DNA of 51,086 nt, from assembly GCA_030527885.1 (NCBI GenBank), contig JAUMZY010000012.1, positions 1-51,086 on the forward strand. Reading direction: 5' to 3'. Origin of the DNA: Corynebacterium sp. GTDB lineage: Bacteria; Actinomycetota; Actinomycetes; Mycobacteriales; Mycobacteriaceae. The notes below the pieces were generated by a model, which saw only the letters and a program-made list of their open reading frames with translations, made no database searches and had not been told where the DNA came from. A program made the translations under genes and the position numbers. Shown in pieces: positions 1,506-47,310 of the stretch (positions within the stretch are counted from its first letter, which is position 1; every line of letters begins with the position of its first letter).

Positions 1506-2654
1506 TTATCGGTTGGAGTCCAAAACACCATTCCGTTGTGATTGCTCGACCGCATCAAGATGCTGATCGTATGTATCCGTAAAGACCGTCTTTCCTGTCT
1601 TATCCACAGCTACGAAGAACAACCAATTGCCTTCCGCCGGGTTCTCCATTGCCGCAATGGCCTTCAGGGATGCTGCCGCAATCGGGGTTTCCGGCAAGCC
1701 TTCTTTGGCGTACGTATTCCAGGGGGTTTGACGCTTACGGTCCTCATCCGTGGTCGCCACTTCCACCGTGGGCAGGTCGTAGTTCACCGTGGAGTCAAAT
1801 TCCAGCTTCATGGGTTTGTGCAGCCTATTCAAAATCACCCGCGCCACTTTGTCGAAGGCGTCGCCGGGTGCTTCCCGCTCCACCAATGATGCTGCGGTAA
1901 GCAGCTCATAGGGGCTAAGGTCAATGGCTTGAGCGCGTGCCTCAATGTTGGTATCGGCGAAGGTTTTGGCGGACTTCGTGATTAAGTCTTTCAGCACGTC
2001 CTTGGCTGACATCCGCGGATCCACAATGTATTCACCCGGCGCGATGAGTCCTTCTAAGCGTTTGGGGTCGTTGCCGCGGCGAGTGACGGGTTCCATGGCC
2101 CAGGATGGTACGCCTAGGGTTTGGAGGTCGGCGCTGCTGGCTTCTTTTTGTAGTTCTTCTACAGTGATGCAGTTTTCTGTGCCTCCAGAGCAGGTTACTT
2201 CGGAGATTTTGGAGTAGATGCCGAACCGGACGTCGCCGGCGACGACGTTGACGTCGAGAAGCGTGTCGCCACCGTTGATGGTGAGCGGCTGGACTTTGTT
2301 GTCGGGGTTGAGTAGGGCGTCGAGTGCTGATTTGACGCTCATTTCGTGTTCCAACTTATAGACGCCTGGTTTGAAGTTGCTGGCGGCTGGGTTGTTGAAG
2401 GTTGCGGTTTGGAACACAGATTCGTTTGCGATGATGCCGCGTTCTTTTAAGATTGGCCCTAGTTCGGACAGGGTTTGTCCGTCGGCGACGGTGATGAGTT
2501 CTACTTGTCCGTTGCCGTCTCCTTTGTAGTCGCGTGTTGTTGTACTAGCCAGATGTGAGCCTATGTATCCCGCAGCTCCGACAAGGAGTACCAAGGAAGC
2601 AAGCAAGACTGCTATGCTGCGTTGACGTCGCTTGACGTATTTCACCTTGCGCAT
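1506..2654 (-). CDS. mltG: Endolytic murein transglycosylase MltG (YceG-like)
   Basis: A 382-residue protein with a short basic N-terminus, one membrane segment (about residues 13-33) and an extracytoplasmic YceG domain. The signature TAASLVEREA at about 253-262 holds the catalytic Glu, followed by the conserved ILNRL. EGLIAPGEY at 201-209 matches the family's conserved EG..xPxTY stretch. MltG cleaves nascent glycan strands at the membrane and is thought to release or terminate growing peptidoglycan chains. It lies 46 bp downstream of ruvX, the usual actinobacterial order, so the two are probably co-transcribed. In related corynebacteria shikimate genes follow mltG; here a CHAP gene and a long spacer follow instead. 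Confidence 0.93.
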   Translation of the reverse strand: MRKVKYVKRRQRSIAVLLASLVLLVGAAGYIGSHLASTTTRDYKGDGNGQVELITVADGQTLSELGPILKERGIIANESVFQTATFNNPAASNFKPGVYKLEHEMSVKSALDALLNPDNKVQPLTINGGDTLLDVNVVAGDVRFGIYSKISEVTCSGGTENCITVEELQKEASSADLQTLGVPSWAMEPVTRRGNDPKRLEGLIAPGEYIVDPRMSAKDVLKDLITKSAKTFADTNIEARAQAIDLSPYELLTAASLVEREAPGDAFDKVARVILNRLHKPMKLEFDSTVNYDLPTVEVATTDEDRKRQTPWNTYAKEGLPETPIAAASLKAIAAMENPAEGNWLFFVAVDKTGKTVFTDTYDQHLDAVEQSQRNGVLDSNR

Positions 2655-2700
2655 AAGTTTCGAGGCTCTCCTTGCGTTTGATAACTTTTCCGTTACGATT

Positions 2701-3240
2701 TTACTGTTCTTGGTCTGGTGGTGCTGAAACGGGTGTTACCCCCTCTAGGTAGTGGGTGCGCCCATCGAGCCAAGATTGCAGGATTTCCACGGCAGCGGCT
2801 TGATCTATGACTTTTCGTCCCGCTTTTTCGCTAACCCCACTTGCGCGTAGTGCCTGATGTGCTACTACGGTTGTTAGCCGTTCGTCGGCCATGCGGACTG
2901 GAATGTGTTGTTCTAGTTTGGTGAGGCGGCGGTTGATTCGGAAGGCGATTTCTTTTGCGTGTTTGATGCTTTTGGAGCCGTGGTTTTTTAGGCTTCGGGG
3001 TAGGCCGACGACGACTTCGACGACGTTGTTTTCGAGTATGAGTTCGATGAGTCGGTCTATGTCGTGTTTGTCGCGGTCTTTGAAGCCGGTTTCCCGTTTG
3101 ATTGTTTCTAGTGGCATGGCGAGGGTGGCGTCGGTGCCTGATAGTGCGACGCCTATGCGTACAGTGCCAACGTCGATACCTAGGCGGCGGCCCCGACCGG
3201 GGTCGTTGATGCCTGGTTTATCTGGTTGGATTGTTGCCAC
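2701..3240 (-). CDS. ruvX: YqgF/RuvX nuclease, pre-16S rRNA processing family
   Basis: A 179-residue RNase-H-fold protein. The N-terminal [14 protein letters not shown] carries the first catalytic Asp, [13 protein letters not shown] is the conserved central strand and loop, and DERLTTV plus the [13 protein letters not shown] end match the family. YqgF in E. coli trims the 5' end of 16S rRNA; the older label is putative Holliday-junction resolvase. The start is the GTG at 3240, preceded by GAAAGG at good spacing. It lies between alaS and mltG as in other Actinobacteria. Confidence 0.93.
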
Positions 3241-3287
3241 TGTGTGCCTTTCGTGTTGTTGATGCCGGGATTAAGAGTACCCCTTCA

Positions 3288-3316
3288 TTAAGTACTTTAT
3301 TAGTTTATTAAGTCAA
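3288..3316 (-). promoter_or_regulatory. Candidate promoter of ruvX-mltG
   Basis: On the minus strand TTGACT (3311-3316) is followed after 17 bp by ACTTAA (3288-3293), about 48 bp before the ruvX GTG, in an AT-rich stretch. The -35 word is good and the -10 word poor. Confidence 0.35.
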
Positions 3317-3440
3317 ATTATTGTTTTCGGGGGTATTTTAGATTTATTGGCTCTTCAACATTAACCCACAAACTTTAAACTTTAAATTCAACGTTAAGGC
3401 GTGTCGGAGAAATTTTATTACGTCGATATCAGCCGCACCA

Positions 3441-3478
3441 GGCGGGCATCCCCTGCATTCAAGCAGGCAACACCCGCC
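3441..3478. terminator. Nested hairpin downstream of alaS
   Basis: Outer arms GGCGGG/CCCGCC and inner arms CCTGC/GCAGG form a two-part stem 60 bp past the alaS stop. There is no clear T-run on the minus strand, so it may be a weak terminator or an RNA-stabilising element. Confidence 0.4.
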
Positions 3479-3536
3479 CTTACTTTTCGCCAGTTATCGC
3501 CGCTTTTCGACAACCACCGCCGCCAGAACAGCCAAT

Positions 3537-6209
3537 TTACACTGCGGAAATGATGTCGTTCATTGCTTTGAGTCCCGCCGGCAGCCCTTCTGGTTGCGTG
3601 CCGGAACCTTGAGCCATATCGGGCTTACCGCCACCCCGACCGTCAATGTAGGGGTTCAAGACCTTCACCAACTCCCCTGCTTTGATACCGCGAGCAACCG
3701 CTTCCTTCGTTGCCGCAACCACGAAGGGCAGTTTGCCGTCCGCGCCCGGCTCTACGGCGAGGATCACCACGCCGGCTTCATCAGCCAGCCGATTCTTGGC
3801 GTCGGTGGCTAGTGTGCGCAGATCCCCCGCTGCCGTACCCGCCGGCAGCACAGCCGAGGCGATCACGATGCCGTTGTCGGTTTTCGCCCGTGCGATCAAC
3901 CGGCTGCCTTGCGCCAGGAGTTCTGCCCGGTGCATGTGCTCAATGGTTTTTTCCGCTTCCTTGAGCTTCGCCGTCAATTGGGCGATGCGATCCGGCACCT
4001 CATCAGAAGGGGCCTTCAAGGAGCTGGCCAGCCCCGCCACCAATGCGCGTTCCTTGCTCAAGTATTTAAAAGAGTCCAGGCCGGAATACGCCTCGATGCG
4101 GCGCGCCCCGGACCCAATGGAGGATTCGCCCAAAATGGCCACCGGTCCGATCTGGGAGGAATGCCCCACGTGCGTGCCACCGCATAGCTCAATGCTGAAT
4201 GGGCCGCCGATTTCTACAACCCGCACCACATTGCCGTAGTTCTCCCCGAACAGGGCCATGGCGCCCATGGCTTTGGCTTCGTCCAGGGTGGTTTCAATGG
4301 TGTTCACCTGCCAGTCGGAGTCCACCGCCTGGTTGGTGATCAGTTCGATCTGCTCCAGCTGCTGCGGGGTGAGTTGCTCCGTGTAGTTGAAGTCGAACCG
4401 CAGGTAGCCGGGCTTGTTCATGGAACCGGCCTGCACGGCGGTGGGGCCCAGCACCTGCCGCAAGGCAGCGTGAATGAGGTGGGTGGCGGAGTGGGCCTGC
4501 CGGGCGGCATGCCGCCAACCTTGGTCCACGGTGGCCTGCACAGTATCGCCCACAGCAAAACCGCCTTGTTCCACGGTGGCGCGGTGCACCCAGAGCTTCT
4601 TGCCGATCTTCTGCACGTCGTTGACCCGCAGCAGGCTATCGCCCAGGGTGATGGTGCCGCGGTCGCCAATTTGGCCGCCGGATTCCGCGTAGAAGGTGGA
4701 GGCGTCCAAGATGACTTCCACGCCTTGGCCAGCGGCCACTTCCCCGACTTTTTCGCCGCCGCTGAGCAGGCCGATCACCTGGGAGGAGGCAGATAGTTCG
4801 TCGTAGCCGATGAATTCGGTGGGGTGGTTATCCACCCAATCCCGGTAGATGGACAGGTCTGCATGTCCGTGTTTCTTGGCCTGCGAGTCTGCTTTGGCGC
4901 GGGCGCGTTGCTCCGCCATGAGCTGGTCGAAGCCGTCGGTGTCCACCGTGAGGCCAGCCTCAGCGGCCATTTCGAGGGTCAAGTCAATGGGGAATCCGTA
5001 CGTGTCGTGCAGGGCGAATGCGTCTGCACCCACCAGCGTGGTCTTGCCGGCAGCCTTGACTTTTTCGGCGGCTTCTTCGAAGAGTTCCGTGCCGGATTCG
5101 AGGGTTTTCAGGAAGGCTGCTTCTTCTGTCACGGCCACCCGTTGGATGCGTTCCCGGTTATCGGCGATCTCTGGGTAGGAAGGCGTCATGGTGTCCATGA
5201 TGGTGTTCATGAAATTCTCCATGGTCTTCCCCTGCGCACCAAGCAGCCGGGCGGACCGAATGATGCGACGCAACAATCGGCGCAGAATATAACCACGACC
5301 TTCGTTACCTGGGGTGACGCCATCCAGGATGAGCATCATGGCGGTGCGTGAGTGGTCTGCGATCACACGGAAGCGAATATCATCTTCATGCTTAGCCCCG
5401 TACACGGAGCCGGTGAGCTTTTGGGCTTCATCAATCACGGGCCGCAGCAGGTCAGTTTCGTAGACGTTGTCCACGCTTTGCAGCAGGCAGGCGATGCGCT
5501 CCACGCCCATGCCGGTATCAATGTTCTTCTTGGGCAGGGGGCCGAGGATTTCAAAATCGTCTTTGCCGGTGCCTTCGCCACGCTCCTTCTCCATGAACAC
5601 GAGGTTCCAGATTTCGAGGTAGCGGGAATCGTCGGCAACAGGGCCGCCTTCCTTGCCGTAAGCTGGCCCGCGGTCGTAGTAGATTTCTGAGGACGGACCG
5701 CAGGGCCCCGGCACGCCCATGGACCAGAAGTTATCGGCCATTCCGAGCCGCTGGATACGTTCTTTCGGTAGCCCCACGATGTTTTCCCAAATATTGGCTG
5801 CCTCATCGTCATCCAGGTACACGGTTACCCACAGTTTTTCCGGGTCGAAACCATAGCCGCCGTCTTCAACGGAGTTGGTGAGCAGTGCCCAGGCGTGCGT
5901 GATCGCGCCTTCCTTGAAATATTGACCGAAGGAGAAGTTGCCGGCCATTTGGAAGAACGTATTATGCCTGGTCGTAACACCTACTTCTTCAATGTCGAGG
6001 GTGCGCACGCATTTCTGAATGCTGGTGGCAGTACCGTTGGGAAATGGTGGGGTTTGCTGCCCCAGGAAGTAGGGTTTAAACGGCACCATGCCAGCGTTGA
6101 CAAACAAGAGGTTGGGGTCGTCTAAGATCAGCGACGCACTGGGCACAGCCTCATGCCCGGCTTGAACGAAGTGATTGGTGAAACGTTCCCTAATTTCGTG
6201 AGTCTGCAC
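3537..6209 (-). CDS. alaS: Alanyl-tRNA synthetase
   Basis: A class II synthetase of about 890 residues that charges tRNA-Ala with alanine. The N-terminal catalytic domain reads [11 protein letters not shown]...FVNAGMVPF. The middle has [14 protein letters not shown] and [10 protein letters not shown]. The editing domain has the zinc residues in [11 protein letters not shown] and [10 protein letters not shown], and a C-terminal DHHA1-type domain ends the protein with [13 protein letters not shown]. The frame is open up to 6263, but the GTG at 6209 (VQTHEIRER) has AAGGA about 9 nt upstream and matches the family start, so I prefer it. It follows rarA and precedes ruvX. All editing and catalytic motifs look intact. 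Confidence 0.95.
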
Positions 6210-6268
6210 GGTGTTTGTATCCTTAAAGTCCAACTTTGCTTCTAGCCATCTAGAAGCACACAATTTGG

Positions 6269-7621: not shown

Positions 7622-7630
7622 AGGGGGTTC

Positions 7631-12006: not shown

Positions 12007-12017
12007 GCTTATCGACG
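12007..12017 (+). repeat. GCTTNTCGACG word, intergenic copy
   Basis: GCTTATCGACG lies 10 bp past the metallopeptidase stop in a convergent gap. It is one of 16 copies in the window (see findings). Confidence 0.7.
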
Positions 12018-12030: not shown

Positions 12031-12062
12031 CTTCCGGCTAGAGGGACACCTCCGGCCGGAAG
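12031..12062. terminator. Convergent hairpin between metallopeptidase and YhgE genes
   Basis: Perfect 8-bp arms CTTCCGGC/GCCGGAAG with a 16-nt loop. The stem overlaps the last codons of the YhgE/Pip gene and is followed on the plus strand by TCTTTC. It may end transcription from both sides. Confidence 0.45.
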
Positions 12063-14062
12063 TCTTTCATTCGCCATTGTCGATCCCGGCGCGCTGCGAG
12101 GACGGATGCGGTGAAGAAGAGGATGAAGACGATGAGGAGTGCGAGTAGTGCCTGGGCGGCGCGGTGGTCGAATTGGGCTTCGGTGCCGAAGATCATGTGG
12201 CGTAGTAGGTTGACGGAGTAGGTCATGGGGTCGTAGGTGTGGAACCAGCGGAGGGGTGCGGGTTGGGTTTCGGGTGGGTAGAGGCCGCCGGAGGAGACGA
12301 TTTGTAGGGTCATGAGGGCGATGCAGAGGACGCGGCCGACGGTGATGCCGAAGATGTTGTTGAGGCCTTGGGTGATAGCGATGAAGGTGGCGGCGATGAG
12401 GCACATGCTGGCCCAGAGGCCTAGTTCGTTGACGGCGTGGAGGCCTAGTGCGAAGCGTTGGAGGAGGAACATGATGGTGGCTTGGGTGATGCCGACCAGG
12501 GCTGCGGGGAGGTAGGAGGCGAGGACGCCCCGGAGGGGGATGGCGCCGGAGTCGATGGCGCGGCGTTCTTTAGGCCGTAGCAGCATGAAGGTGATGGTGG
12601 CGCCGAGGAAGAGCCCGATAGAGATGAACATGGGGGCTAGGCCGAGTCCGAAGAGGCCGAGGGTGTCTTTGGGGGTTTGTTGGGCGACGGGGGTGGTGAA
12701 GTTTTTTGAGGCGCCGTCGGCGAATTCGGGGATTTTTTGGGCGTTTTCGTTGAGTTTGAGGGCGAGTTCGCCAGTGCCGTCGTCAAGCTTGACGATGCCG
12801 TCGGCGAGTTGGGTGGCGCCCACGGTGAGCTGTTGGCTGCCTTGGGCGAGTTGGGAGGTACCGTCGGCGAGTTTTTGGGTGCCGATGACGAGGCGTTGGG
12901 AGCCGTCGTTGAGTTTGTGTAGGCCTTCGCTGAGTTGGTTGGCTCCAGCGGTGGCTTTGTTGAGGCCGCCGCGGTATTCGGCGTTGGGGTCGCTGAGTTG
13001 GCGTTGGAGTTCCTGGGCGCCGCCGGCAAGTTTGTTGAGTTGGCTCAGTGGGTCGGTGCCGTCGGCGTTGGGGGTGGTGCTTAGGCCGGTGGCGTTGAGG
13101 GTGGCGATCATGCCGTCGACTTGTTCGGCAAATTGGTTGGTTTGGGGGAGGTTGACGGTTCGGAGTTGGGTGGCGAGGTTGACCAGGATCGTGAGGAGTT
13201 GTTGTTGGGTTTGGGCGAGGTTTTGGGCTGGGCCGACGACTTTGTTCACGCCGTCGCTGATTTGGTCGGCGCCGGCTCCTAGTTTGTCGGTGGCGGCGTT
13301 CAGTTGCGTGAGGCCGTCGGCGAGTTGGGTGGCGGCGGTGTCGGCGGTGCCGAGGTTGTCCGCCAGTGTTTGGGCGCCTTGGTTGACTTCGGCGGCGCCG
13401 TCTTTGGCGGTGGTGAGGTTGTCGTTGAGTTTTTTGCTACCGTCTTTGAGCTGGTTGGCGCCGTCGCGGGCTTTCTTCGTGCCGTCTTTGAGTTGGTTGG
13501 CGCCGTCGCCGGCTTTGTGCAGGCCTTGGTCGATGGTACCGAAGCCCACGAGGAGTTGGTTGACCATTTGGCCGCCTAGGTTTTCGTTCACGGTGGCGAG
13601 CACCCGGGTGACCACTTGGTTTCCCAGGGTGGTGGCGATCAGCCCGTTGGTGTTGTTGAAAATGGCGTTGAGGGTGGCTTGGTGTGGGGTGTCGGTGTTG
13701 GCGCTGGCGACGGATTGGGAGAAGTCGGCGGGGAGTTCGATGGCGAAGTAGTAGGTGCCGTTGGCGATGCCTTCTTTGGCGTCGTCGGCGGTGACTTCGT
13801 GGAAATCCACTGCTTTCGATGCCATGAGCTTGTCGACGATCTGGTCGCCGGCTACCGTGTGTTTGCTGTTGATCTTGGCGCCCTTATCGGAATTCACCAG
13901 GGCCACGGGGAGGTGGTTGAGCCGGCCGATGGGATCCCAGTAGCTCCAGACGAAGAGCCCGCCGAAGAGCAGCGGCAGCATGATGATGACGCTTAAGGCA
14001 ATGGGTGGGAGTTTGCCGCGGCCGAAGCGGCGGAGTTCGGTTCCAATGTGGAAAAGGCTCAT
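12038..14062 (-). CDS. YhgE/Pip-type membrane protein, ABC-2-like permease
   Basis: About 674 residues with the architecture of phage-infection-protein/YhgE homologues. One N-terminal membrane helix (PIALSVIIMLPLLFGGLFV) is followed by SYWDPIGRLNHLPVALVNSD, a long extracytoplasmic coiled-coil-like region, then about five C-terminal helices. The central region repeats units of about 11 residues such as ANQLKDGTKKARDG and GTQKLADGTSQLAQG. The ATG at 14062 overlaps the upstream stop in an ATGA, so it is translationally coupled to the ATPase-like gene, which suggests a two-part exporter. Mycobacterial and corynebacterial relatives are often linked to surface or cell-wall export, but the substrate is unknown. 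It could equally be a structural membrane protein. Confidence 0.8.
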   Translation of the reverse strand: MSLFHIGTELRRFGRGKLPPIALSVIIMLPLLFGGLFVWSYWDPIGRLNHLPVALVNSDKGAKINSKHTVAGDQIVDKLMASKAVDFHEVTADDAKEGIANGTYYFAIELPADFSQSVASANTDTPHQATLNAIFNNTNGLIATTLGNQVVTRVLATVNENLGGQMVNQLLVGFGTIDQGLHKAGDGANQLKDGTKKARDGANQLKDGSKKLNDNLTTAKDGAAEVNQGAQTLADNLGTADTAATQLADGLTQLNAATDKLGAGADQISDGVNKVVGPAQNLAQTQQQLLTILVNLATQLRTVNLPQTNQFAEQVDGMIATLNATGLSTTPNADGTDPLSQLNKLAGGAQELQRQLSDPNAEYRGGLNKATAGANQLSEGLHKLNDGSQRLVIGTQKLADGTSQLAQGSQQLTVGATQLADGIVKLDDGTGELALKLNENAQKIPEFADGASKNFTTPVAQQTPKDTLGLFGLGLAPMFISIGLFLGATITFMLLRPKERRAIDSGAIPLRGVLASYLPAALVGITQATIMFLLQRFALGLHAVNELGLWASMCLIAATFIAITQGLNNIFGITVGRVLCIALMTLQIVSSGGLYPPETQPAPLRWFHTYDPMTYSVNLLRHMIFGTEAQFDHRAAQALLALLIVFILFFTASVLAARRDRQWRMKDFRPEVSL
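13828..13838 (+). repeat. GCTTNTCGACG word within the YhgE gene, antisense to it
   Basis: GCTTGTCGACG on the plus strand. In the gene it reads as the codons for VDK, a different frame use from the other coding copies, which argues for a DNA-level motif. Confidence 0.6.
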
Positions 14063-14763
14063 CGGGGCGTCACCGCCTGCACGTGGTTGGCGCTGCTGGC
14101 TGCAATGATGCTGTGGTCGCACAGGTGCGTGTAGTCGGGGTTAACGCTCATGGCTATGACGGGGGTGGTTTGGGCGTATTTTTGCAGTTTGAGCAGGAGT
14201 TTTTTGCGCAGTACCATGCTGCGGAGTTGGTCGATGTCATCAACGATGAGCACGCTGGCGGTGGGGCGGGACATGATGGCTAACACGATGCGGAGCATGA
14301 GGCGGCTTAAGGTATCCAACTCCCCCACCAAGGTGGTGCGGGCTTTGGTGTTGGGCATGGTGAAACCGAAGAGTTCTGCGACGGTTGTGTAGTAGGGAAT
14401 GTCGTCGATGCTGCGGGGTGTGGGTTTCCACCATGGTTGGTGCCAGGCGGCTTGTTCCCGGATGACGGTGCGCACGGTGACGAGGCGTTCTAGGTTGTCG
14501 ATCTCTGTCACACCGGCTAGGGCGATGCGTTGGAAGCGGTGACGGGTACTGGTGTATGCCTGGTTGTTGCTGGTGGTGAGGGTGATGGTGCCGCGGCGGG
14601 GTTTCATGCGGCCGGCCAGAGTCATGCTGAGACTGGTGGCGGCGTGTTCCCGGCCGGTGTGGATCAGTGTGAGCCCGGTGGCGGGTACGGCGAAGTCACT
14701 AAACGCTATTTTGGATATAACTTCTAGCCCAGTGACTGTCAGAACATTCATGGGGTTTTCCAT
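14059..14763 (-). CDS. Degenerate ABC-transporter ATPase-like protein
   Basis: About 234 residues with the outline of an ABC nucleotide-binding domain but altered motifs. The P-loop position reads TGREHAATSL, lacking the GK[ST] lysine. The signature LSGGQ appears as DTLSRLMLR. Walker B is SVLIVDDID, with Asp in place of the catalytic Glu. The H-loop position (IAMSVNPD) has no His. It overlaps the YhgE/Pip gene by ATGA and probably forms a complex with it. I infer it does not hydrolyse ATP normally and may be regulatory or structural. The frame opens at a TTG (14784); the ATG at 14763 or 14751 is more likely, the latter having GGAAAA upstream. Confidence 0.65.
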   Translation of the reverse strand: MENPMNVLTVTGLEVISKIAFSDFAVPATGLTLIHTGREHAATSLSMTLAGRMKPRRGTITLTTSNNQAYTSTRHRFQRIALAGVTEIDNLERLVTVRTVIREQAAWHQPWWKPTPRSIDDIPYYTTVAELFGFTMPNTKARTTLVGELDTLSRLMLRIVLAIMSRPTASVLIVDDIDQLRSMVLRKKLLLKLQKYAQTTPVIAMSVNPDYTHLCDHSIIAASSANHVQAVTPR

Positions 14764-17075: not shown

Positions 17076-17096
17076 CTTGCTTATCGACGGCTAACG
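17073..17096 (+). terminator. Small hairpin enclosing a GCTTNTCGACG word after sdaA
   Basis: Arms GTTAGC/GCTAAC just at the sdaA stop codon enclose a loop containing GCTTATCGACG (17079-17089). The stem is only 6 bp and no T-run follows, so termination is doubtful; the enclosed word is the more notable part. Confidence 0.3.
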
Positions 17097-18948: not shown

Positions 18949-20214
18949 ATGGGTTTGTACGGTGGACACCACGTCGGTGAGTGCCACGTCGGTTTGGGTG
19001 TGCTCGGCCAAGTCTTTGAGGGCCACCACGCCGGTTTCTATTTCCTGGTCGCCTAGGACGAGGGCGAAGCGGGCGCCGGCGCGGTCGGCGCCTTTCATTG
19101 CGCCTTTCAGGCCGCGGTCGCCGTAGCTCATGTCGGCGCGGATGCCGGCGGCGCGGAAGGCGTCGATAAGCTCGGTGAGCTGGTGTTTGGCTGTTGTCCC
19201 CATGGCGACACCATACACGTCGACCCGGGAGCCGTCGACAAGCTGGGTGGCTTCGGCTTCGAGGGCGAGTACGGCTCGGTCCACGCCGAGGCCGAAGCCG
19301 ATGCCGGAAAGTTCTTGCCCGCCGAGTTGGGCCATGAGGCCGTCGTATCGGCCGCCGCCGCCGATGCCGGATTGGGCACCGAGGCCGTCGTGGACGAATT
19401 CGAAACAAGTTTTGGTGTAGTAGTCGAGGCCGCGCACCATTCGGGGGTTGATGACGTAGTTCACGCCCAACGCATCCAGGTATCCGATTACTTGTTCGAA
19501 GTGGTCGCGGGCTTCAGCGGAGAGGTTGTCCAGCATTAAGGGGGCCTCTGCGGTGAGTTCTTGGACTTCTGGGCGCTTATCGTCCAGCACACGCAGCGGG
19601 TTGATTTCGGCGCGGTGCCGGGTTTCGGCATCCAGGGGGAGCTTGAAGAGGAATTCTTGGAGTTTTTCCCGGTAGGCGGGCCGGCAGGTGTGGTCGCCTA
19701 AGCTGGTGATTTCCAGCCGGTAGTCGCGCAGCCCGATGCTGCTGAAGCAGCGGTTAGCCAGCGCTACCACTTCTGCGTCTAGAGCGGGGTCGTCCACGCC
19801 GATGGCCTCAACGCCTACTTGTTGCAGTTGCCGGTAGCGGCCAGCTTGGGGGCGTTCGTAGCGGAAAAACGGGCCGTAGTAGCTGAGTTTCACCGGCAGT
19901 TGGCCCCGGTCGAGATTGTGTTCGATAGCGGCGCGGATGACGCCGGCGGTGCCTTCGGGCCGCAAGGTGACTGTGCGGCCGCCGCGGTCGGCGAAGGTGT
20001 ACATTTCCTTGCTGACAATGTCGGTGGATTCGCCCACGCCGCGGGCAAAGAGATTGGTGTCTTCGAAGATGGGAAGCTCAATGTGCTCGTATCCGGCCAG
20101 TCGTGCCTGATGCGCAAACATGTCGCGCACGGCGATGAACTGTGCGGATGTTGGCGGAACATAATCGGGCACCCCTTTGGGGGCGGAAATCTTATTGAGC
20201 TTCTTATTCGTCAC
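18925..20214 (-). CDS. hisS: Histidyl-tRNA synthetase
   Basis: A 429-residue class II synthetase. KGVPDYVPP at the N-terminus, motif 2 [13 protein letters not shown], histidine-specific [12 protein letters not shown] and GGGGRYDGL, and motif 3 [15 protein letters not shown] are all present, followed by the anticodon-binding domain. The start is the GTG at 20214. The gene overlaps the convergent GNAT gene by 24 bp. Two copies of the GCTTNTCGACG word lie within it (19161-19171, 19233-19243), coding for L-I-D and L-V-D. Confidence 0.95.
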
Positions 20215-24231: not shown

Positions 24232-24242
24232 CGTCGAAAAGC
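24232..24242 (-). repeat. GCTTNTCGACG word, intergenic copy
   Basis: GCTTTTCGACG on the minus strand, three bases past the rel stop codon, in the gene's own direction. Confidence 0.7.
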
Positions 24243-29205: not shown

Positions 29206-29216
29206 GCTTGTCGACG
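29206..29216 (+). repeat. GCTTNTCGACG word, intergenic copy
   Basis: GCTTGTCGACG between the secF terminator and the lipoprotein start, the only intergenic copy not within about 25 bp of a stop codon. Confidence 0.7.
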
Positions 29217-29309: not shown

Positions 29310-30440
29310 TTAGTTATTGCGGCCAGGCCGCCAGCTCACCCCACTGGAGTTGGGGTTCTCGATGGCGGAAAGGCGGCTCTCGGAGGCAGCAACAGCTTGC
29401 GCCAGGCGCTTTTCTTCCTCGTCATCAGGGGTTTCCCCAGATTCCAGCTTGGCGCGGTATTTCGCCACCTGCTCGTTGTGTTCCTTGGTTTTCTTGGTGC
29501 GGTTCTTGACGCTCACCAGGAATGGGGTGGCAAGGAAGATCGACGAGACGGTACCCCACACCACACCGATGAGCTGGATGAGTGCCAGGTCCTTCAGAGT
29601 GCCAACACCCATGAGCCACACGGCGATGACCATCAGCGCCAGGATTGGCAGCACGGAAATCACCGTGGTGGAGATCGACCGCATCACGGTTTGGTTGATG
29701 GCCAGGTTGGCGTGTTCCGCATACGTCATGCGTTTGTTGCCTAAATAGCCGGCCGTGTTTTCCCGCACCTTGTCGAACACGATCACCGTGTCGTACAGGG
29801 AGAAGGCCAGCACGGTGAGCAAACCAATGATGGTGGCGGGTGTGACTTCAAACCCCACTAGGGCGTACAAACCCATGATGGTGATGAGGTCCACGAAGAG
29901 CGCCAGGATGGCGGCGATGGCCATGGCGCCTTGCAGCCGCAGCGCAATGTAGCCGAAGGCCACGAGGAGGAACACACCCATGGAAATCAGCATGCGGGTG
30001 GTGATAGTGCTACCCCAGGATTCGCTCACGGTGGAATCACCAATGGCATCCGGGGTTTGCCGTCCCTCACTGTTGACGGTCTTGTAGGCGTCGAAAAGCG
30101 CCTGCCGTGCCGCATCAATCTGTTCCTGCGTCAACCGCTGCGAGTTGATTTCTAGAATCTGGGTGTCGCCGCTACCCACAATCTGCACCTGTTCGGGTTC
30201 GATGCCTGTGGCGTTTTTGAAGGTTTCCTGCACCTGCGAGGTTTCCAGGTTGGCGGCCGGCATGTTCATCTTCGTGCCGCCCTCGAAGTCAATGCCGAGG
30301 TTAAAGCCGCGCACCAGGATGCCTACCACGCATACCACGATGAGCCCGAGGGTGACCCAATACGCCACCCGTCGCTTACCGACGAAGTCAATATTGCCAT
30401 CACCAGTAAAAATCTGTTCAACCGTGCTTGGTGAAGACAT
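29310..30440 (-). CDS. secF: Protein translocase subunit SecF
   Basis: 376 residues with six expected membrane helices. The first is followed by GIDFEGGTKMNM, the SecD/F signature. Transmembrane motifs FSLYDTVIVFDKVREN and NQTVMRSISTTVISV are typical SecF. A charged C-terminal tail follows. SecDF uses the proton gradient to complete Sec export. GAGGAGAAG precedes the ATG, two bases after the secD stop, so the two are co-translated. A GCTTNTCGACG word lies inside (30089-30099), coding for L-F-D. Confidence 0.95.
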   Translation of the reverse strand: MSSPSTVEQIFTGDGNIDFVGKRRVAYWVTLGLIVVCVVGILVRGFNLGIDFEGGTKMNMPAANLETSQVQETFKNATGIEPEQVQIVGSGDTQILEINSQRLTQEQIDAARQALFDAYKTVNSEGRQTPDAIGDSTVSESWGSTITTRMLISMGVFLLVAFGYIALRLQGAMAIAAILALFVDLITIMGLYALVGFEVTPATIIGLLTVLAFSLYDTVIVFDKVRENTAGYLGNKRMTYAEHANLAINQTVMRSISTTVISVLPILALMVIAVWLMGVGTLKDLALIQLIGVVWGTVSSIFLATPFLVSVKNRTKKTKEHNEQVAKYRAKLESGETPDDEEEKRLAQAVAASESRLSAIENPNSSGVSWRPGRNN

Positions 30441-34396: not shown

Positions 34397-35008
34397 TTAT
34401 TTTTGCCCCAGGGCGCTCAGGGTGGCGCGTAGCGCTGCGGCGGTGGTGAGCGTGGGGTCGTCGACAAGCACGGTGTGTAGGACGGGTTCGGCGACTTTTT
34501 CGCTGAAGCCTAACCCCACCAACGCCGCTAGTACTTGTTCTGCTACGTCGGTGGTGCCGGTGGGTGCGGTCGTGGGGGTGCTGGTTGTGTCGGGAATGCT
34601 GACGTCGTAGCTCTTGACCTTGTCTTTGAGGTCGACCACCATTCTTTCGGCCATGCGTTTGCCCACGCCGGGGATTTTTTGCAGTGCTTTGGCGTCGCTG
34701 TGAGTGATGGCGTGGGCGAGTTCGCTGGTGGAGTAGACGGATTGGGCGGCGAGCGCGAGTTTGGGTCCGAGGCCGGATACGGTTTGTAGGATGCTGAACA
34801 TTTCGCGGGATTGGGTGTCCAGGAAGCCGTAGAGGGTTTGGGATTCTTCCCGCACAATCATGGTAATCAGCACGAATGCTTCTTCCCCGCGGGTGAATTT
34901 GCCAAGGGTGGCGGGGGTGGCGAGCACTTGGTAGCCCACGCCGCCGCATTCCACTACCGCGTGGTGCAGGGTGATATCAATGATGGTTCCGCGCAGGGAT
35001 ACGATCAT
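34397..35008 (-). CDS. ruvA: Holliday junction DNA helicase subunit RuvA
   Basis: 203 residues. The N-terminal OB fold (MIVSLRGTIIDI...VVECGGVGYQV) is followed by two helix-hairpin-helix motifs (SGLGPKLALA, IPGVGKRMAERMVVDLKDK), a Thr/Pro linker and the C-terminal RuvB-binding domain III. It holds four-way junctions for RuvB. AAGGAG precedes the ATG. A GCTTNTCGACG word lies at 34459-34469 (L-V-D). Confidence 0.95.
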   Translation of the reverse strand: MIVSLRGTIIDITLHHAVVECGGVGYQVLATPATLGKFTRGEEAFVLITMIVREESQTLYGFLDTQSREMFSILQTVSGLGPKLALAAQSVYSTSELAHAITHSDAKALQKIPGVGKRMAERMVVDLKDKVKSYDVSIPDTTSTPTTAPTGTTDVAEQVLAALVGLGFSEKVAEPVLHTVLVDDPTLTTAAALRATLSALGQK

Positions 35009-35038: not shown

Positions 35039-35049
35039 GCTTATCGACG
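35039..35049 (+). repeat. GCTTNTCGACG word at the ruvC stop codon
   Basis: GCTTATCGACG on the plus strand; the last codons and TAA stop of ruvC (35041-35043, minus strand) lie inside it. Confidence 0.65.
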
Positions 35050-37273: not shown

Positions 37274-37280
37274 CCACGAG

Positions 37281-38032: not shown

Positions 38033-38788
38033 TTATTCTGCTTCGAGTGCGGCAATGACCTCGGCGGAAAGATCCATGTTGGTGTACACGTTTTGCACGT
38101 CATCGGATTCTTCCAGGGCGTCGATAAGCCGGAAAATCTTTTTAGCATCGGCGAGTTCCAAAGCCACTTCCACGGAAGCCCGGAAGTCCTGTTCGGAATC
38201 GTCCACGTCAATGCCCGCATCAACGAGGGCCGCCTTGATGGCCGGCAGGTCGGTGGGGGCGGAAATGATTTCGAACCTGTCGCCGACTTCGTTGACCTCT
38301 TCAGCACCGGCTTCCAGCACGGCCAGGAGCACGTCGTCTTCGGTCCGGTCACCCTTGAGCACGGTGACTACCCCTTTACGGGTGAACATGTAGCTGACGG
38401 CGCCGGATTCTGCCATGTTGCCGCCGTTTTTGGTCATGGCGGTGCGCACTTCCGTGGCGGCCCGGTTGCGGTTATCGGTCAAACATTCGATGAGTACGGC
38501 CACACCGTTGGGTCCGTAGCCTTCGTACATGATGGTTTGCCAGTCAGCGCCGCCGGCTTCTTCACCGGAGCCGCGTTTGCGGGCGCGTTCGATGTTGTCG
38601 TTGGGGACGGAAGCCTTTTTGGCTTTGCGGATCATGTCATCCAGGGTGGGGTTGGCTGCGGGGTCCCCACCACCGGTGCGTGCTGCAACCTCAATGTTTT
38701 TAATGAGCCGGGCGAATTCTTTACCACGCTTGGCGTCGTTTGCTGCCTTCTTGTGCTTCGTGGTTGCCCATTTTGAGTGGCCTGACAT
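38033..38788 (-). CDS. YebC/PmpR family protein (TACO1-like)
   Basis: About 251 residues. [55 protein letters not shown] and [15 protein letters not shown] are diagnostic. Family members have been described as transcriptional regulators and more recently as translation factors acting at polyproline stalls. The ATG at 38788 has AGGGAG upstream; the frame's earlier start adds 26 unnatural residues. Position next to ruvC is common; here the lipoprotein set has come between. A GCTTNTCGACG word lies at 38119-38129. Confidence 0.93.
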
Positions 38789-38932: not shown

Positions 38933-38943
38933 CGTCGACAAGC
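38933..38943 (-). repeat. GCTTNTCGACG word, intergenic copy
   Basis: GCTTGTCGACG on the minus strand, about 14 bp past the tesB stop, in the gene's own direction. Confidence 0.7.
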
Positions 38944-38956
38944 CACTGCCCCGAGA

Positions 38957-39838: not shown

Positions 39839-39935
39839 GGTGGTGAGCTTCCTTCAGGGCCTCATAGATGGTCATCAATGATGATAACCACTGGATTATT
39901 GGTGGGTGGATTTTTTAAGTAGCTTTAACAGTGAA

Positions 39936-39957
39936 AACCACCCGCTCGGGTGGCTCA
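39936..39957 (-). terminator. Orphan terminator-like hairpin upstream of tesB
   Basis: CCACCCG/CGGGTGG with a 2-nt loop is followed on the minus strand by TTTTC. No gene lies immediately upstream in that direction, so it could end a small RNA or act as an attenuator for tesB. Confidence 0.45.
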
Positions 39958-40035
39958 GTGACTGGGAAAACTAGACTTTTGTTTGCAACTTGCTTTAAAT
40001 TCTGAAGTGTTGTTTAGCCTTATTTATGGATAAAT

Positions 40036-40050
40036 CAACATTTCATGTTG
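40036..40050. promoter_or_regulatory. Palindrome CAACAT-TTC-ATGTTG
   Basis: Perfect 6-3-6 palindrome 38 bp upstream of the mannosyltransferase start, in the divergent region with tesB. Candidate operator; no regulator is assigned. Confidence 0.25.
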
Positions 40051-40087
40051 TATTAGACCCAGTTGAGATTGTAGAGGTCGCTCACGA

Positions 40088-41338: not shown

Positions 41339-41341
41339 TGA

Positions 41342-41352
41342 GCTTTTCGACG
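41342..41352 (+). repeat. GCTTNTCGACG word, intergenic copy
   Basis: GCTTTTCGACG fills most of the 17-bp gap between the converging mannosyltransferase and LemA-like stops. Confidence 0.7.
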
Positions 41353-41355
41353 CCC

Positions 41356-41814: not shown

Positions 41815-41828
41815 GTGTCGTGCTTTCG

Positions 41829-42917
41829 TTAGAGGACAGTGACTTTAGTTCCATCAGCTACTGTTTCGTATACTCGTACGACTTCGGCGGCTACGTGGCC
41901 CCAGTCGTATTTGGTGGCGCGGTGCGTGCCGGCTGCTACGAAGCGGGCGCGTAACGTGGGGTCGTCGATAAGCTGTCGTAGTTTCTCGCGCAGGTCGGTG
42001 GGGTCGCCGGTGTGGAAGAGCATGCCGGCGGGGTTGTCGGATTCGATGTCGCATACGGCGGCGAAGGCTTCGAGGTCGCTGGCGACGACGGCGCAGTGGG
42101 CGGCCATGCCTTCGACGAGGACGATGCCGAAGCTTTCGCCGCCGGTGTTGGGGGCGACGTAGATGTCGGCGCGGCCGAGGATGGCGATTTTTTCGGCGTC
42201 GGTGACTCTGCCGACGAAGTTGACGCTGGGGATGTCGCGGGGGGTGCCGCCGCCCATGATGGTGACGCGGACGTCCCTGTCGAGTCCTTCGAGTGCGGCC
42301 AGTAGGATGTCGAGGCCTTTGCGGGGTTCGTCGAGGCGGCCGAGGAAGACGATTTCGGGTGGGGTGTCTCTGTGGTGGGTGACGCCGTTGGCGAAGGCGT
42401 GAGTGTCGACTCCGTTGGGAATGAGGACGGGGTCGCCGCCTAGTTGCTCTACTTGCCAGCGGCGGGCCATTTCGCTGACGGCGATGCCGCCGCGGATTTT
42501 TTCCAGGCGGGGCCGCAGGAGCGGTAGGACGAGTTTGAGCAGTCGGGAGCCCGTTGAGGAGGCATGATAGGTTGCCACGATGGGGCCTTCTGCTACTTGC
42601 AGTGCTGCGAGAGAGAAGCTGGGGGAATTGGGTTCGTGAATGTGGAGGACATCAAAATTGCCCGTGGTGATGAATTCTCTGATGCGGGTGAACGTGCGGG
42701 GGCCAAACGAGAGGCGGGCTACGGATCCGTTGTATGAGATGGGGACGCTAGTGCCGCCGCGGACGACGAAGTCAGGGACGAGGGTGGTGTCGCTGCAGGG
42801 TCCGATGACTTGGACTTCGTGGCCTTGGTTGATGAGGTGGGTTGCGAGGTCGAGGATGTGGGCTTGTACTCCCCCGGGTTCGTCAAAGGAATATGGACAC
42901 ACAAAACCTATGCGCAT
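41829..42917 (-). CDS. pimA: Phosphatidyl-myo-inositol mannosyltransferase PimA
   Basis: About 362 residues, a GT4 glycosyltransferase. MRIGFVCPYSFDEPGGVQAH starts the N-terminal Rossmann domain. VATYHASSTGSR, IPNGVDTHAF and GGESFGIVLVEGMA (the E-x7-E motif) form the donor site. It transfers the first mannose from GDP-mannose to PI at the inner membrane face. The ATG at 42917 has GGGGAG upstream. It is the third step gene of the pgsA-acyltransferase-pimA order conserved in Corynebacteriales. A GCTTNTCGACG word is at 41963-41973. Confidence 0.94.
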   Translation of the reverse strand: MRIGFVCPYSFDEPGGVQAHILDLATHLINQGHEVQVIGPCSDTTLVPDFVVRGGTSVPISYNGSVARLSFGPRTFTRIREFITTGNFDVLHIHEPNSPSFSLAALQVAEGPIVATYHASSTGSRLLKLVLPLLRPRLEKIRGGIAVSEMARRWQVEQLGGDPVLIPNGVDTHAFANGVTHHRDTPPEIVFLGRLDEPRKGLDILLAALEGLDRDVRVTIMGGGTPRDIPSVNFVGRVTDAEKIAILGRADIYVAPNTGGESFGIVLVEGMAAHCAVVASDLEAFAAVCDIESDNPAGMLFHTGDPTDLREKLRQLIDDPTLRARFVAAGTHRATKYDWGHVAAEVVRVYETVADGTKVTVL

Positions 42918-42977
42918 GGTTGTGCTACTCCCCTTTCCTTTGAATAATGATGCTGTCTTCAAAGTGTAGCGACTTTT

Positions 42978-43877: not shown

Positions 43878-43888
43878 GCTGATCAAGC

Positions 43889-44542: not shown

Positions 44543-45128
44543 GGGCTACACCTGGGAATGTTTCGTCGGCGGCGGCGAGTTCCGCCCAGGTTTGGGCGAA
44601 GAGTCGTCGGGTTTCGCGCAGGAGTTGGGGCAGCACTTTGGTGCCGCTGATGACGGTCATGAAGTTGCTGTCCCCATTCCAGCGGGGTACCACGTGGAGG
44701 TGGAGGTGTTCGGCGACGGAGCCGCCGGCGGAGCGCCCAAGGTTGAAGCCGACGTTGCAGGCGTCGGGGCAGGATGCGGTTTTGAGGACGCGCAGTGCCG
44801 CTTGGGTAAACGCCATGAGCTCTATAGATTCCGCCGGGGTGAGCTCTTCTAGGTTGGGTTCTTCCCGGTAGGGCACCACCATCATGTGCCCGGAGTTGTA
44901 GGGGAAGAGGTTGAGGACGCAGTAGACGTATTCCCCGCGGGCGACGATGAGGCCTTCTTCGTCGCTCAAATGTGGGATTTCTACGAATGGGTTGGTCCGG
45001 TGGCCGGACTGTGATGTTTCGGTACCTTTTTCCACGATGTAGTTCATGCGGTATGGTGCCCAGAGTCGTTCGAGCCGATCGAAGTCGCCTACTCCTCTAT
45101 CGACAAACTCCTCTTGTGGCTTAGTCAC
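44535..45128 (-). CDS. HIT-family nucleotide hydrolase/phosphorylase
   Basis: About 197 residues. The histidine triad is in SVAEHLHLHVVPRW; NLFPYNSGHMMVVPYR and CNVGFNLG also fit. Related mycobacterial proteins act on diadenosine polyphosphates. The GTG at 45128 with GGTGAGG just upstream is preferred over the frame's first start at 45200. It sits between thrS and pgsA as in Mycobacterium and Corynebacterium. Confidence 0.9.
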   Translation of the reverse strand: MTKPQEEFVDRGVGDFDRLERLWAPYRMNYIVEKGTETSQSGHRTNPFVEIPHLSDEEGLIVARGEYVYCVLNLFPYNSGHMMVVPYREEPNLEELTPAESIELMAFTQAALRVLKTASCPDACNVGFNLGRSAGGSVAEHLHLHVVPRWNGDSNFMTVISGTKVLPQLLRETRRLFAQTWAELAAADETFPGVAHA

Positions 45129-45243
45129 AGCTTCCTCACCCCTAGGTTTCGTGTTATTGGGTTTATGCTTCCCCAACTCTACTAAGAAGCTCCACCCCAA
45201 GTGGTTACTTTGGGTGTGGAGCCGCCAGCATGTCGCAAATTTG

Positions 45244-47310
45244 TTACGCCAATCGTTGGGTTACGGCAGCGTCGTTGGGTTGCTCATTGGTGCGCGACCG
45301 CACCCATTCGTCGATAAGCGCAATGGCCTGTTCCACGGGCACGCCGTTGACTTGCGAGCCGTCGAGGAAGCGGAAGCTCACCGCGTCGGCTTCAACATCG
45401 CGGGCACCGGCGAGCAGCATGAATGGTACCTTTGCCTGCGTGTAGTTGCGGATTTTCTTTTGCATGCGGTCGTCTGAGGTGTCGACGGTGGCCCGAATGC
45501 CCTTGTCCCGCAGCCGCGCCGTGATGGCTTCCAGGTGCGGCACGAACGTGTCCGCCACGGGGATGCCGATGACTTGGTGCGGCGCCAACCAGGCGGGGAA
45601 AGCACCCGCGTAGTGCTCCAGCAACACCCCGAAGAAACGTTCGATGGAGCCGAAGAGTGCCCGGTGAATCATAATCGGGCGTTTCTTCGAACCGTCGGAG
45701 GCGGTGTATTCCAGTTGGAAGCGTTCCGGCAAGTTGAAGTCAAGCTGCACGGTGGACATTTGCCAGGTGCGGCCGATGGCATCGCGGGCCTGCACGGAAA
45801 TTTTCGGCCCATAGAAGGCCGCGCCGCCCGGGTCGGGAACCAGATCCAGGCCGGAATTATCGGCCACTCGCTGCAGAATCGTGGTGGATTTCTCCCAGAT
45901 CTCATCGGAACCCACGAATTTATTGGGGTCCTTCGTGGAAAGCTCCAGGTAGAAATCATCCAGCCCATAATCCCGCAGGAGGGAAATGATGAAGTCCAAC
46001 ACCGAGGTGAGTTCGGCTTCGAGTTGATCCTCGGTGCAGTAAATGTGGGCGTCATCCTGGGTGAAGCCGCGGGCGCGGGTGAGGCCGTGAATCACACCGG
46101 ATTTTTCGTAACGGTACACGGTACCAAATTCGAACAACCGGAGTGGTAGCTCGCGGTAAGAACGGCCCCGGGATGCGAAGATGAGGTTGTGCATGGGGCA
46201 GTTCATGGGCTTGGCGTAGTAGTCCACGGCTTGTTTGGTCACGTTGCCGTCGTCGTCTACTTCCCCATCCAGTTGCATGGGTGGGAACATGCCATCGGCG
46301 TAGAAGTCGAGGTGGCCGGATTTTTCAAACAATTCCCCCTTGGTCAAGTGTGGCGTGTTGACAAAGGAGTAGCCGGCGGCCAGGTGGCGGCGCCGGGAGT
46401 GCTCTTCCATCTCCAGGCGCACGATGCCGCCGTTGGGGTGGAACACGGGGAAGCCAGAGCCTATTTCATCCGGGAAGGAGAAGAGGTCCAGTTCTTGGCC
46501 TAGACGCCGGTGGTCGCGTTTTTCTGCTTCGGCTAGTTTGTGCTGGTATTCGGCAAGGGCGTCTTTGGATTCCCAGGCGGTGCCGTAGATGCGTTGCAGC
46601 CCGGCGTTGGCTTGGTCGCCGCGCCAGTAGGCGGCAGAGGACCGGGTGAGGGCGAACGCGGGAATGTACTTGGTGGTGGGCACGTGCGGGCCGCGGCACA
46701 GGTCGTACCATTCGACGTCGCCGGTGCGGGGGTTAAGGTTGTAGTAGCCGGTGAGCTCCCCTGCCCCCACTTCGGTGGCCTCGTCGGAATCAGGGTCGAC
46801 GGAGCCCTTATCAACGATGAGTTCCAATTTATAGGGTTCATCTTTGAGTGCTTCGGAGGCTTCCGCTTGGCTGGCGTAGACGCGGCGTTCGAATTTTTGC
46901 CCCTGCTTGATGATTTTCTTCATGCGCTTTTCAATGCGCTGCAAATCTTCCGGGGTGAAGGGTTCTGCGACGTCGAAGTCGTAGTAAAAGCCGTTGTCGA
47001 TGGCTGGACCGATGCCCAATTTTGTGCCGGGGAATTCTTGCTGCACTGCCTGCGCCAGCACGTGGGTGCAGGAGTGGCGGATGACGGCGCGTCCTTCTTC
47101 AGTGTTGGCGGGGATGGGGGTAAATTCCGCATCACTGGTAGGAACAAATGATAAATCTTTGAGGTTGCCTTCGGTGTCTTTGACCACCACGATGGCTTCC
47201 GGGCCGTTGTTGGGCAATCCCAATTCCCGCATTGCCGCGCCGACGGGGGTGCCGGCGGGAACCGTGAAGGGTGCGTGTGGGTTGGCCTGGGCATCAGTCA
47301 ACTGTGCCAT
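45244..47310 (-). CDS. thrS: Threonyl-tRNA synthetase
   Basis: 688 residues. An N-terminal TGS domain ([18 protein letters not shown]) is followed by the editing-type domain ([26 protein letters not shown]). The class II core has [12 protein letters not shown] with the zinc Cys, motif 2 [22 protein letters not shown] and motif 3 [17 protein letters not shown]. The anticodon-binding domain ends the protein. AAGGAG lies upstream of the ATG. A GCTTNTCGACG word is at 45309-45319. The leader may be structured (see the next entry). Confidence 0.95.

What the first reader, a model, noticed from the sequence alone, without database searches (positions are those of the whole stretch)
2252..45319. Over-represented asymmetric 11-mer GCTTNTCGACG scattered through the window
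Reading both strands I found 16 copies matching all ten fixed bases. Plus orientation: 12007, 13828, 17079, 29206, 35039, 41342. Minus orientation (left coordinate): 2252, 19161, 19233, 24232, 30089, 34459, 38119, 38933, 41963, 45309. Two strands of 51,086 positions over 4^10 give about 0.1 by chance at equal base use. Seven lie in intergenic gaps or across a stop codon, although such sequence is a small part of the window; six of these are within about 25 bp of a stop. The base N takes A, G, T and C. Eight coding copies use one frame (x-CTT-NTC-GAC-G, L-[ILVF]-D). The copy in YhgE reads in the opposite sense, and the intergenic copies cannot be codon effects. Near-matches occur at 3502 (GCTTTTCGACA), 15641 and 50419. 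Even spacing, mixed orientation and gene-end preference recall DNA-uptake sequences, Chi-like sites or binding sites of a nucleoid or segregation protein; I know of none described for corynebacteria.
Basis: partly seen in the sequence, partly recalled or inferred. Interest (0 to 1): 0.78.

Follow-up and report, generated by a model that had tools for sequence, protein, structure and literature searches.

The report
Genus-wide uptake-like DNA tag in Corynebacterium
Many Corynebacterium genomes carry hundreds of evenly spaced copies of an 11-letter DNA tag that is scarce in prophages and changes spelling from clade to clade, which looks like a self-recognition tag for taking up DNA, a kind of system best known from two families of Gram-negative bacteria.

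Summary
The incomplete own genome holds 640 (reversed control 21). In 454 kb, synonymous-codon shuffles give about 3 coding copies where 115 exist. The wider form GCTTNNCGAYG is at least 4-fold over control in 113 of 151 Corynebacterium genomes, under 2-fold in 32, and not abundant in 140 genomes of 30 sister genera. Copies ignore replication direction, gather behind genes, are evenly spaced and are scarce in prophages (2 against 51 expected in five stretches; 18 against 73 in all seven). Clades have dialects; between two close species one base switched at 12 of 15 shared sites. This fits a DNA-uptake sequence read by a specific receptor, perhaps with the Tad pilus, ComEA and ComEC. No receptor is known, no competence family tested tracks the motif, uptake is untested; chromosome-organising or Chi-like roles remain open. 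Searches of open papers showed no earlier description.

The parts
2252..2262 (-). motif copy GCTTCTCGACG, coding (YceG-like gene 1506-2654)
12007..12017 (+). motif copy GCTTATCGACG, convergent intergenic gap, 9 bp past a stop
13828..13838 (+). motif copy GCTTGTCGACG, antisense inside ABC2/YhgE-like gene 12038-14122
17079..17089 (+). motif copy GCTTATCGACG, intergenic, 3 bp past the stop of a serine dehydratase gene
19161..19171 (-). motif copy GCTTATCGACG, coding (histidyl-tRNA synthetase)
19233..19243 (-). motif copy GCTTGTCGACG, coding (histidyl-tRNA synthetase)
24232..24242 (-). motif copy GCTTTTCGACG, convergent gap, 3 bp past the stop of a RelA/SpoT gene
29206..29216 (+). motif copy GCTTGTCGACG, tandem intergenic gap, 93 bp from a stop
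30089..30099 (-). motif copy GCTTTTCGACG, coding (SecD/SecF family)
34459..34469 (-). motif copy GCTTGTCGACG, coding (RuvA)
35039..35049 (+). motif copy GCTTATCGACG, across a stop codon between two tandem genes
38119..38129 (-). motif copy GCTTATCGACG, coding (YebC family)
38933..38943 (-). motif copy GCTTGTCGACG, intergenic, 13 bp past a stop
41342..41352 (+). motif copy GCTTTTCGACG, convergent gap, 3 bp from both stops
41963..41973 (-). motif copy GCTTATCGACG, coding (glycosyltransferase family 4)
45309..45319 (-). motif copy GCTTATCGACG, coding (threonyl-tRNA synthetase-like)

Best explanation
The motif is a DNA-uptake-sequence-like self tag of Corynebacterium. SHOWN: a 10-13 bp motif (general form GCTTNNCGAYG) in 113 of 151 genus genomes at a median of about one copy per 2.3 kb (densest about one per 1.3 kb), kept at the DNA level and not through codon use; in the own genome in both orientations, evenly spaced, richest behind genes; scarce in prophages of four related genomes; with clade dialects and concerted base switching at orthologous sites of two species. 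INFERRED: a sequence-specific reader imposes it. DNA fragments holding the tag are bound and imported preferentially and recombined, so copies are repaired and spread by biased uptake; when the receptor's preference drifts, the whole genome follows.
For: Own genome 640 against 21 control; 113 of 151 genus genomes at 4-fold control or more. Codon-aware null: 115 coding copies against 3.3 in 454 kb. Intergenic 43 of 157 against 12.8% of positions; 1.78 per kb in convergent, 0.76 in tandem, 0.32 in divergent gaps. No polarity, 80:80 by the GC-skew sign of each stretch. Even spacing: CV 0.76 against 0.97 +/- 0.07, 0 of 2000 simulations as low. Prophages: 2 against 51 expected in five 20-kb stretches, 18 against 73 in all seven fetched. 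Two Corynebacterium phages hold 1 and 0 in 86 kb. Dialects. Concerted switch: 12 of 15 shared sites are C in one species and T in the other; the same 5-mer outside the motif switches in 43 of 106, inside in 12 of 14 (p=0.003), and read the other way in 45 of 264 against 12 of 13 (p=2e-8). Machinery: ComEC in 151 of 151, prepilin peptidase in 149 of 151, 141 over the cut-off, TadA in 11 of 12 genomes tried, Tad loci in rich and poor species. In the actinobacterium Micrococcus luteus transformation needs Tad and com genes (PMC8467076, abstract and passages).
Against: No uptake experiment; no receptor candidate. ComEC, prepilin peptidase and Tad genes are also present in species without the motif. 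TadA was not found in the incomplete own genome. Weakly enriched genomes (G041, G062, G119, G128, G131) have comEA and comEC in one frame without stops over the aligned parts. Inverted copy pairs, found in high numbers in Neisseriaceae (PMC3630211, passages), are rare here: 4 inverted of 5 pairs under 120 bp, from about 160 sites. At larger distance site positions are hardly shared: G112 and G006 share 2 of 13 alignable sites (9% of random positions keep the same bases). The listings of my literature searches showed no report of competence in Corynebacterium that I recognised.
Confidence: 0.6

Rival explanations
1. Binding site of a sequence-specific nucleoid or segregation protein that needs evenly spaced sites on the chromosome; its binding preference drifted between clades.
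For: Even spacing, both orientations, site positions shared between close species, scarcity in prophages and dialects all fit a chromosomal reader.
Against: Concerted replacement of many weakly selected sites is hard without a drive such as biased uptake (inference). No reader candidate either. I know of no nucleoid protein with about 1,000 sites of 10-13 bp (recalled).
Confidence: 0.2
2. Chi-like site that tells the AdnAB (or another) end-processing nuclease that the DNA is self.
For: High density; host DNA tagged and prophage DNA mostly not; the PF12705 nuclease domain, which I take to include AdnAB, is in 151 of 151 genomes.
Against: No polarity against local GC skew, 80:80; longer than known Chi sites (recalled); the nuclease domain is equally found in the 32 genomes without the motif.
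Confidence: 0.1
3. Site of a DNA modification or a mutational by-product (HIP1-like), without a reader.
For: A very abundant short motif of unclear function has precedent in cyanobacteria (recalled).
Against: The motif is asymmetric; one-substitution variants are few beside 160 perfect copies (most frequent: T5 to A 20, T5 to C 12, G0 to A 9, G10 to A 6); it is scarce in prophages; and the peptide L-[FLIV]-D-[VADEG] occurs 144 times against 78 expected from residue frequencies alone, so selection seems to reach the proteins.
Confidence: 0.06
4. Codon-context artefact.
For: Two frames hold 86 of 111 coding copies.
Against: Synonymous shuffles give 3.3 against 115; intergenic density is higher than coding.
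Confidence: 0.01

Closest known systems
DNA uptake sequence (DUS) of Neisseriaceae, read by the minor pilin ComP
   Same: Short motif, thousands of copies, intergenic permissive regions favoured, clade dialects sharing a fixed core, some genomes of the family without it (PMC3630211, abstract and passages); length of 10-12 bp and both orientations (recalled)
   Different: Actinobacterial host with a mycomembrane (recalled) and a Tad pilus locus; unrelated sequence with an N2 gap; few inverted pairs; receptor unknown; uptake untested
Uptake signal sequence (USS) of Pasteurellaceae
   Same: About 1,300 copies in H. influenzae, used in terminators (PMC5217627, passages); a receptor was only recently predicted (PMC12616744, listing and start of abstract)
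   Different: Unrelated sequence, Gram-negative outer membrane
Chi sites of RecBCD/AddAB (recalled)
   Same: Core-genome over-representation
   Different: No polarity here; longer; no end-processing nuclease that separates species with and without the motif was found
HIP1 of cyanobacteria (recalled)
   Same: Extreme abundance through a clade
   Different: HIP1 is palindromic; this motif is not

Membership tests
DNA uptake sequence (DUS/USS) | Short motif over-represented genome-wide beyond codon effects | tested here: met
   (codon test on 454 kb of the own genome)
DNA uptake sequence (DUS/USS) | Both orientations, no replication polarity | tested here: met
   (80:80 by GC-skew sign of each stretch); strands mixed inside single contigs
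DNA uptake sequence (DUS/USS) | Marks core DNA, scarce in mobile DNA | tested here: met
   seven prophage places: 18 against 73, five of them 2 against 51; two phages 1 and 0; plasmid pTET3 0 strict and 5 loose matches with 2 in control
DNA uptake sequence (DUS/USS) | Enriched in permissive intergenic gaps behind genes | tested here: met
DNA uptake sequence (DUS/USS) | Frequent inverted pairs acting as terminators | tested here: inconclusive
   4 inverted of 5 close pairs, but only 5 pairs under 120 bp among about 160 sites
DNA uptake sequence (DUS/USS) | Dialects that follow phylogeny | tested here: met
   based on small samples of sites per clade
DNA uptake sequence (DUS/USS) | Competence machinery present | tested here: met
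   ComEC 151 of 151, peptidase 149 of 151, TadA 11 of 12, Tad loci; also present in motif-free species, so not discriminating; TadA not found in the incomplete own genome
DNA uptake sequence (DUS/USS) | Cognate sequence-specific receptor | not tested
   no candidate; comparison of 116 orthologous proteins between two dialect clades gave no clear outlier among Tad/Com proteins
DNA uptake sequence (DUS/USS) | Motif raises DNA uptake or transformation | not testable with these tools
   needs a bench assay
Chi site | Orientation bias with replication | tested here: not met
Chi site | Alters the helicase-nuclease | not testable with these tools
   presence of the PF12705 domain in 151 of 151 is no test of this
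KOPS/FtsK-orienting sequence | Strong polarity from origin to terminus | tested here: not met
HIP1 | Palindromic octamer GCGATCGC (recalled) | tested here: not met
   motif is asymmetric and of another sequence

The most novel reading that the evidence does not exclude
Corynebacterium has its own DNA-uptake-sequence system with evolving dialects: a self-recognition code for transformation that arose outside the proteobacteria, in bacteria with a mycolic-acid outer membrane, probably read by a Tad-pilus or other envelope receptor not yet known, and acting as a barrier to gene flow between species.
Probability: 0.55. Interest if true: 0.93.

Novelty: new variant of a known kind. Interest (0 to 1): 0.85.

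Why it matters
Abundant uptake sequences with dialects were known to me, and appeared in my search listings, only in Neisseriaceae and Pasteurellaceae. A third, independent case in a genus of skin and nose commensals and industrial strains would mean that much of the genus is, or recently was, naturally competent and self-selective. It would give a second natural series of motif-receptor co-evolution and a simple test of whether tagged DNA can be transformed into corynebacteria.

Tried and rejected
Gene correlate: families present in motif-rich and missing in motif-poor genomes were sought by candidates only. ComEC, prepilin peptidase, the PF12705 nuclease domain, the Tad locus and the comEA-comEC neighbourhood of 20 genomes do not separate the groups.

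Loss of competence genes as a natural knock-out: G137 looked broken in comEC, but that stretch holds undetermined bases, so I dropped it. G112 comEC is in one frame over the part aligned. G114 has a frame change in comEC and is still motif-rich. This idea led nowhere.

Long ComEC reading frames in motif-poor genomes suggested an extra domain; the one motif-poor and one motif-rich ComEC scanned show no nuclease domain. Dropped.

Hidden dialects in motif-free species: k-mer searches gave GCTTGCCGATGCC in G053 and G137, but nothing convincing in G010, G014, G066, G147, C. phocae or C. meridianum; G033 has 10 TCACCGACG in 20 kb (0.5 expected), which I did not follow. CGACGCCACC in several species is probably Asp-Ala-Thr codon context (inference). 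C. macginleyi holds 240 GCTTNNTGATG (control 9) where three close relatives hold 93-105: a dialect shift or decay; not resolved.

First gene calls were too sparse (66% coding) and were replaced. The tree holds 36 rows; nine further loci, all its intended outgroups among them, were left out because the script found no full reading frame, so the root is only the midpoint.

Full report
OBSERVATION. The position notes are also right: seven intergenic or stop-crossing copies, six within 25 bp of a stop, eight same-strand coding copies in one frame, one antisense copy in an ABC2/YhgE-like gene.

GENOME-WIDE. The window lies in a 1.64-Mb, 53%-complete genome that holds 640 copies (324 forward, 316 reverse); the pattern read backwards gives 21. 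In 444 kb of it, 157 copies with full flanks give the consensus wGCTT[not C]TCGACG with weak preference for C or A and then C behind it. Third-position C periodicity in the flanks reflects the coding copies (inference).

NOT A CODON EFFECT. In 429 called genes (131,049 codons, 454 kb) the motif occurs 64 times sense and 51 antisense. Shuffling synonymous codons over all genes 200 times gives 0.96 and 2.29 (maxima 4 and 7); a shuffle that also keeps the next base gives 0.80 and 1.85. L-[FLIV]-D-[VADEG] peptides number 144 against 78 expected from residue frequencies alone, and CTT is 73 of 144 leucine codons in the L-[FLIV]-D-G context, 940 of 12,605 overall. So the tag shapes codons and, probably, protein sequence.

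PLACEMENT. 43 of 157 copies are intergenic against 12.8% of random positions; 3 cross a gene end; 111 are coding and use all six frames, two of them for 86. Density is 1.78 per kb in convergent gaps (14 copies), 0.76 in tandem (25) and 0.32 in divergent gaps (5). By the GC-skew sign of each stretch 80 copies point one way and 80 the other; strands are mixed inside single contigs. Spacing is more even than chance: coefficient of variation 0.76 against 0.97 +/- 0.07, 0 of 2000 simulations as low; gaps under 500 bp are 10% against 17%. One-substitution variants are few beside 160 perfect copies: T5 to A 20, T5 to C 12, G0 to A 9, G10 to A 6, G0 to C and C9 to T 5 each, the rest 4 or fewer, with 0.3-1.5 expected for each.

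DISTRIBUTION. In 151 genomes of the genus (drawn from a larger group) the strict form already splits species into rich and poor. The wider form GCTTNNCGAYG, tried after motif-poor species showed a variant spelling, is at least 4-fold over its reversed control in 113 of 151, between 2- and 4-fold in 6, and under 2-fold in 32; the richest has 1,969 copies and the median of the 113 is 0.44 per kb. In 140 genomes of 30 other genera of the family the ratio to control stays at or below about 2.7 (my reading of the table). In 245 other genomes of the phylum (six of them also among the 140) none exceeds about 0.12 per kb, although a few small counts reach 5- to 6-fold over control (my reading of the table). 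Of 33 named Corynebacterium loci 31 were followed to their genomes. Rich ones include C. tuberculostearicum, C. striatum, C. aurimucosum, C. minutissimum, C. pollutisoli, C. lubricantis and C. silvaticum; poor ones C. glyciniphilum, C. falsenii, C. suicordis, C. dentalis and C. phocae. In a tree of 36 helicase proteins beside the Tad locus, rooted at the midpoint for want of outgroups, eight motif-poor rows form one fully supported clade opposite 28 rows; among these 28, G014 and C. phocae are poor, C. meridianum is weak (157 against 70) and 25 are rich. The identity of the genus rests on matching counts and one identical protein between unnamed and named genomes.

DIALECTS. The own form is mostly GCTT[AGT]TCGACG. 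The pooled C. tuberculostearicum-type loci show GCTTNNCGACGNC (C at base 9 in 53 of 62 sites, C at the last place in 62 of 62; these loci overlap in homology, so the sites are not independent). The C. accolens-like G006 shows GCTTNNCGATGNC (29 of 29 at both places), G053 and G137 GCTTGCCGATGCC (mostly), G111, G142 and G143 GCTTNNCGATG (T in 10 of 11, 8 of 8, 19 of 19); C. lubricantis, G027 and G089 favour an A after CGACG (10 of 13, 17 of 21, 13 of 14). In a 22-kb region of seven genomes all 11 sites of each of two accolens-like genomes coincide with sites of at least one tuberculostearicum-type genome. Over 100 kb of synteny at 79% identity, 15 of 30 alignable G006 sites (15 of 28 from the other side) are sites in G004 too, where 17% of random positions keep the same eight bases; in 12 of the 15 base 9 is T in one and C in the other. 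Outside the motif the same 5-mer CGACG reads CGATG in the other species in 43 of 106 cases (one G set aside), inside in 12 of 14 (one A set aside; p=0.003); from the other species, 45 of 264 outside (18 others set aside) against 12 of 13 inside (p=2e-8). These sites persisted while the spelling changed in concert, which points to a reader whose preference changed. Over larger distances sharing fades: G053 shares 6 of 15 with G006 and 4 of 13 with G004 (10-11% at random), G112 2 of 13 and 4 of 15 (9% at random).

MOBILE DNA. Terminase hits were found in 4 of 52 motif-rich genomes searched, at seven places, one of them under the family's cut-off. The seven 20-kb stretches hold 18 copies where the genome-wide densities predict 73. 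Five of them hold 2 against 51; two proteins were tested from each, and 9 of the 10 match phage head or tail families; their edges were not mapped, and the split into five and two was made after seeing the gene calls. In L252 all 10 copies lie beyond 7.7 kb, after portal, head and head-closure genes; the two genes tested there match no phage family. In L251 all 6 lie beyond 11.8 kb, after portal and head genes; two of the three downstream genes tested match endolysin- and ParB-like phage families, which I read as host genes near the origin, untested, while a ribonucleotide reductase-like gene lies just before. Corynebacterium phages BFK20 and phi673 hold 1 and 0 in 86 kb; plasmid pTET3 has no strict copy and 5 loose ones with 2 in control; the densities of their hosts were not measured.

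MECHANISM. A receptor-read uptake tag explains all of this with one process: biased import and recombination of tagged DNA keeps the tag, spaces it on the scale of imported fragments, favours places where it does no harm, leaves new prophages bare, and lets the spelling drift genome-wide with the receptor. The genus carries the parts that Micrococcus luteus, also an actinobacterium, needs for transformation: Tad pilus, ComEA, ComEC (PMC8467076, abstract and passages). This step is inference. Against it: no receptor, no experiment, TadA not found in the incomplete own genome, and none of the gene families tested is missing where the motif is missing. A motif-free relative may simply take up DNA without preference, as many competent bacteria do (recalled). 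A chromosome-organising reader would leave similar traces and gets 0.2; Chi gets 0.1.

PRIOR WORK. Searches with Corynebacterium and uptake sequence, natural transformation, Chi/AdnAB, over-represented motifs, Tad pili, and the 11-mer itself listed no paper that by title or start of abstract describes this motif; several listings were capped (20 of 149, 20 of 310, 15 of 158, 15 of 31, 10 of 98). The 11-mer search found five papers, of which I saw passages of two, both primer sequences for C. glutamicum genes. Passages of PMC5217627 on spaced motifs mention Corynebacterium only for CRISPR patterns. The library holds open-licence papers only, so an earlier description elsewhere is possible.

Noticed in passing
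L096, L098 (G147, G066) against L088-L095: In the motif-free clade tadB and tadC appear as one longer gene (357 and 366 aa called in two genomes; single-frame coverage in six more loci), in the motif-rich clade as two genes.
   Followed up: partly
G297 (C. macginleyi), L111: Four former motif sites read GCTTNNTGATG instead of CGATG, and the genome holds 240 of that form (control 9): a new dialect in the making or CpG decay.
   Followed up: partly
L057, L058, L091 (G053): The 3' half TGCCGATGCC occurs 30 times in 58 kb, only about half of these behind GCTT; the two halves of the motif seem able to part.
   Followed up: no
L139 (C. silvaticum): tadZ, tadA and a tadE-like gene show frame changes or a stop, while the genome keeps 1,162 motif copies: perhaps a recent loss of the pilus.
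   Followed up: no
L188-L207: One or both of two small genes (about 129 and 215 aa) sit downstream of comEC and holA (names of neighbours recalled from usual gene order) in ten of the twelve motif-rich genomes looked at and in G014, but not in G056, G099 or the other seven motif-poor genomes.
   Followed up: no
L088/L089 and L193/L194: ComEA (72% identity), the second TadE-like protein (72%) and TadZ (75%) are below the median of 86% of 116 proteins between two dialect clades; fast evolution or receptor change.
   Followed up: no
G041, G062, G119, G131, G128: Species with only 2- to 5-fold enrichment (144-183 copies) and GC-rich comEC regions: early loss, early gain or an unseen dialect.
   Followed up: partly
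L041 10361-10397: Two copies 26 bp apart (start to start) in inverted orientation can form a perfect 11-bp stem, as in neisserial uptake-sequence pairs.
   Followed up: no
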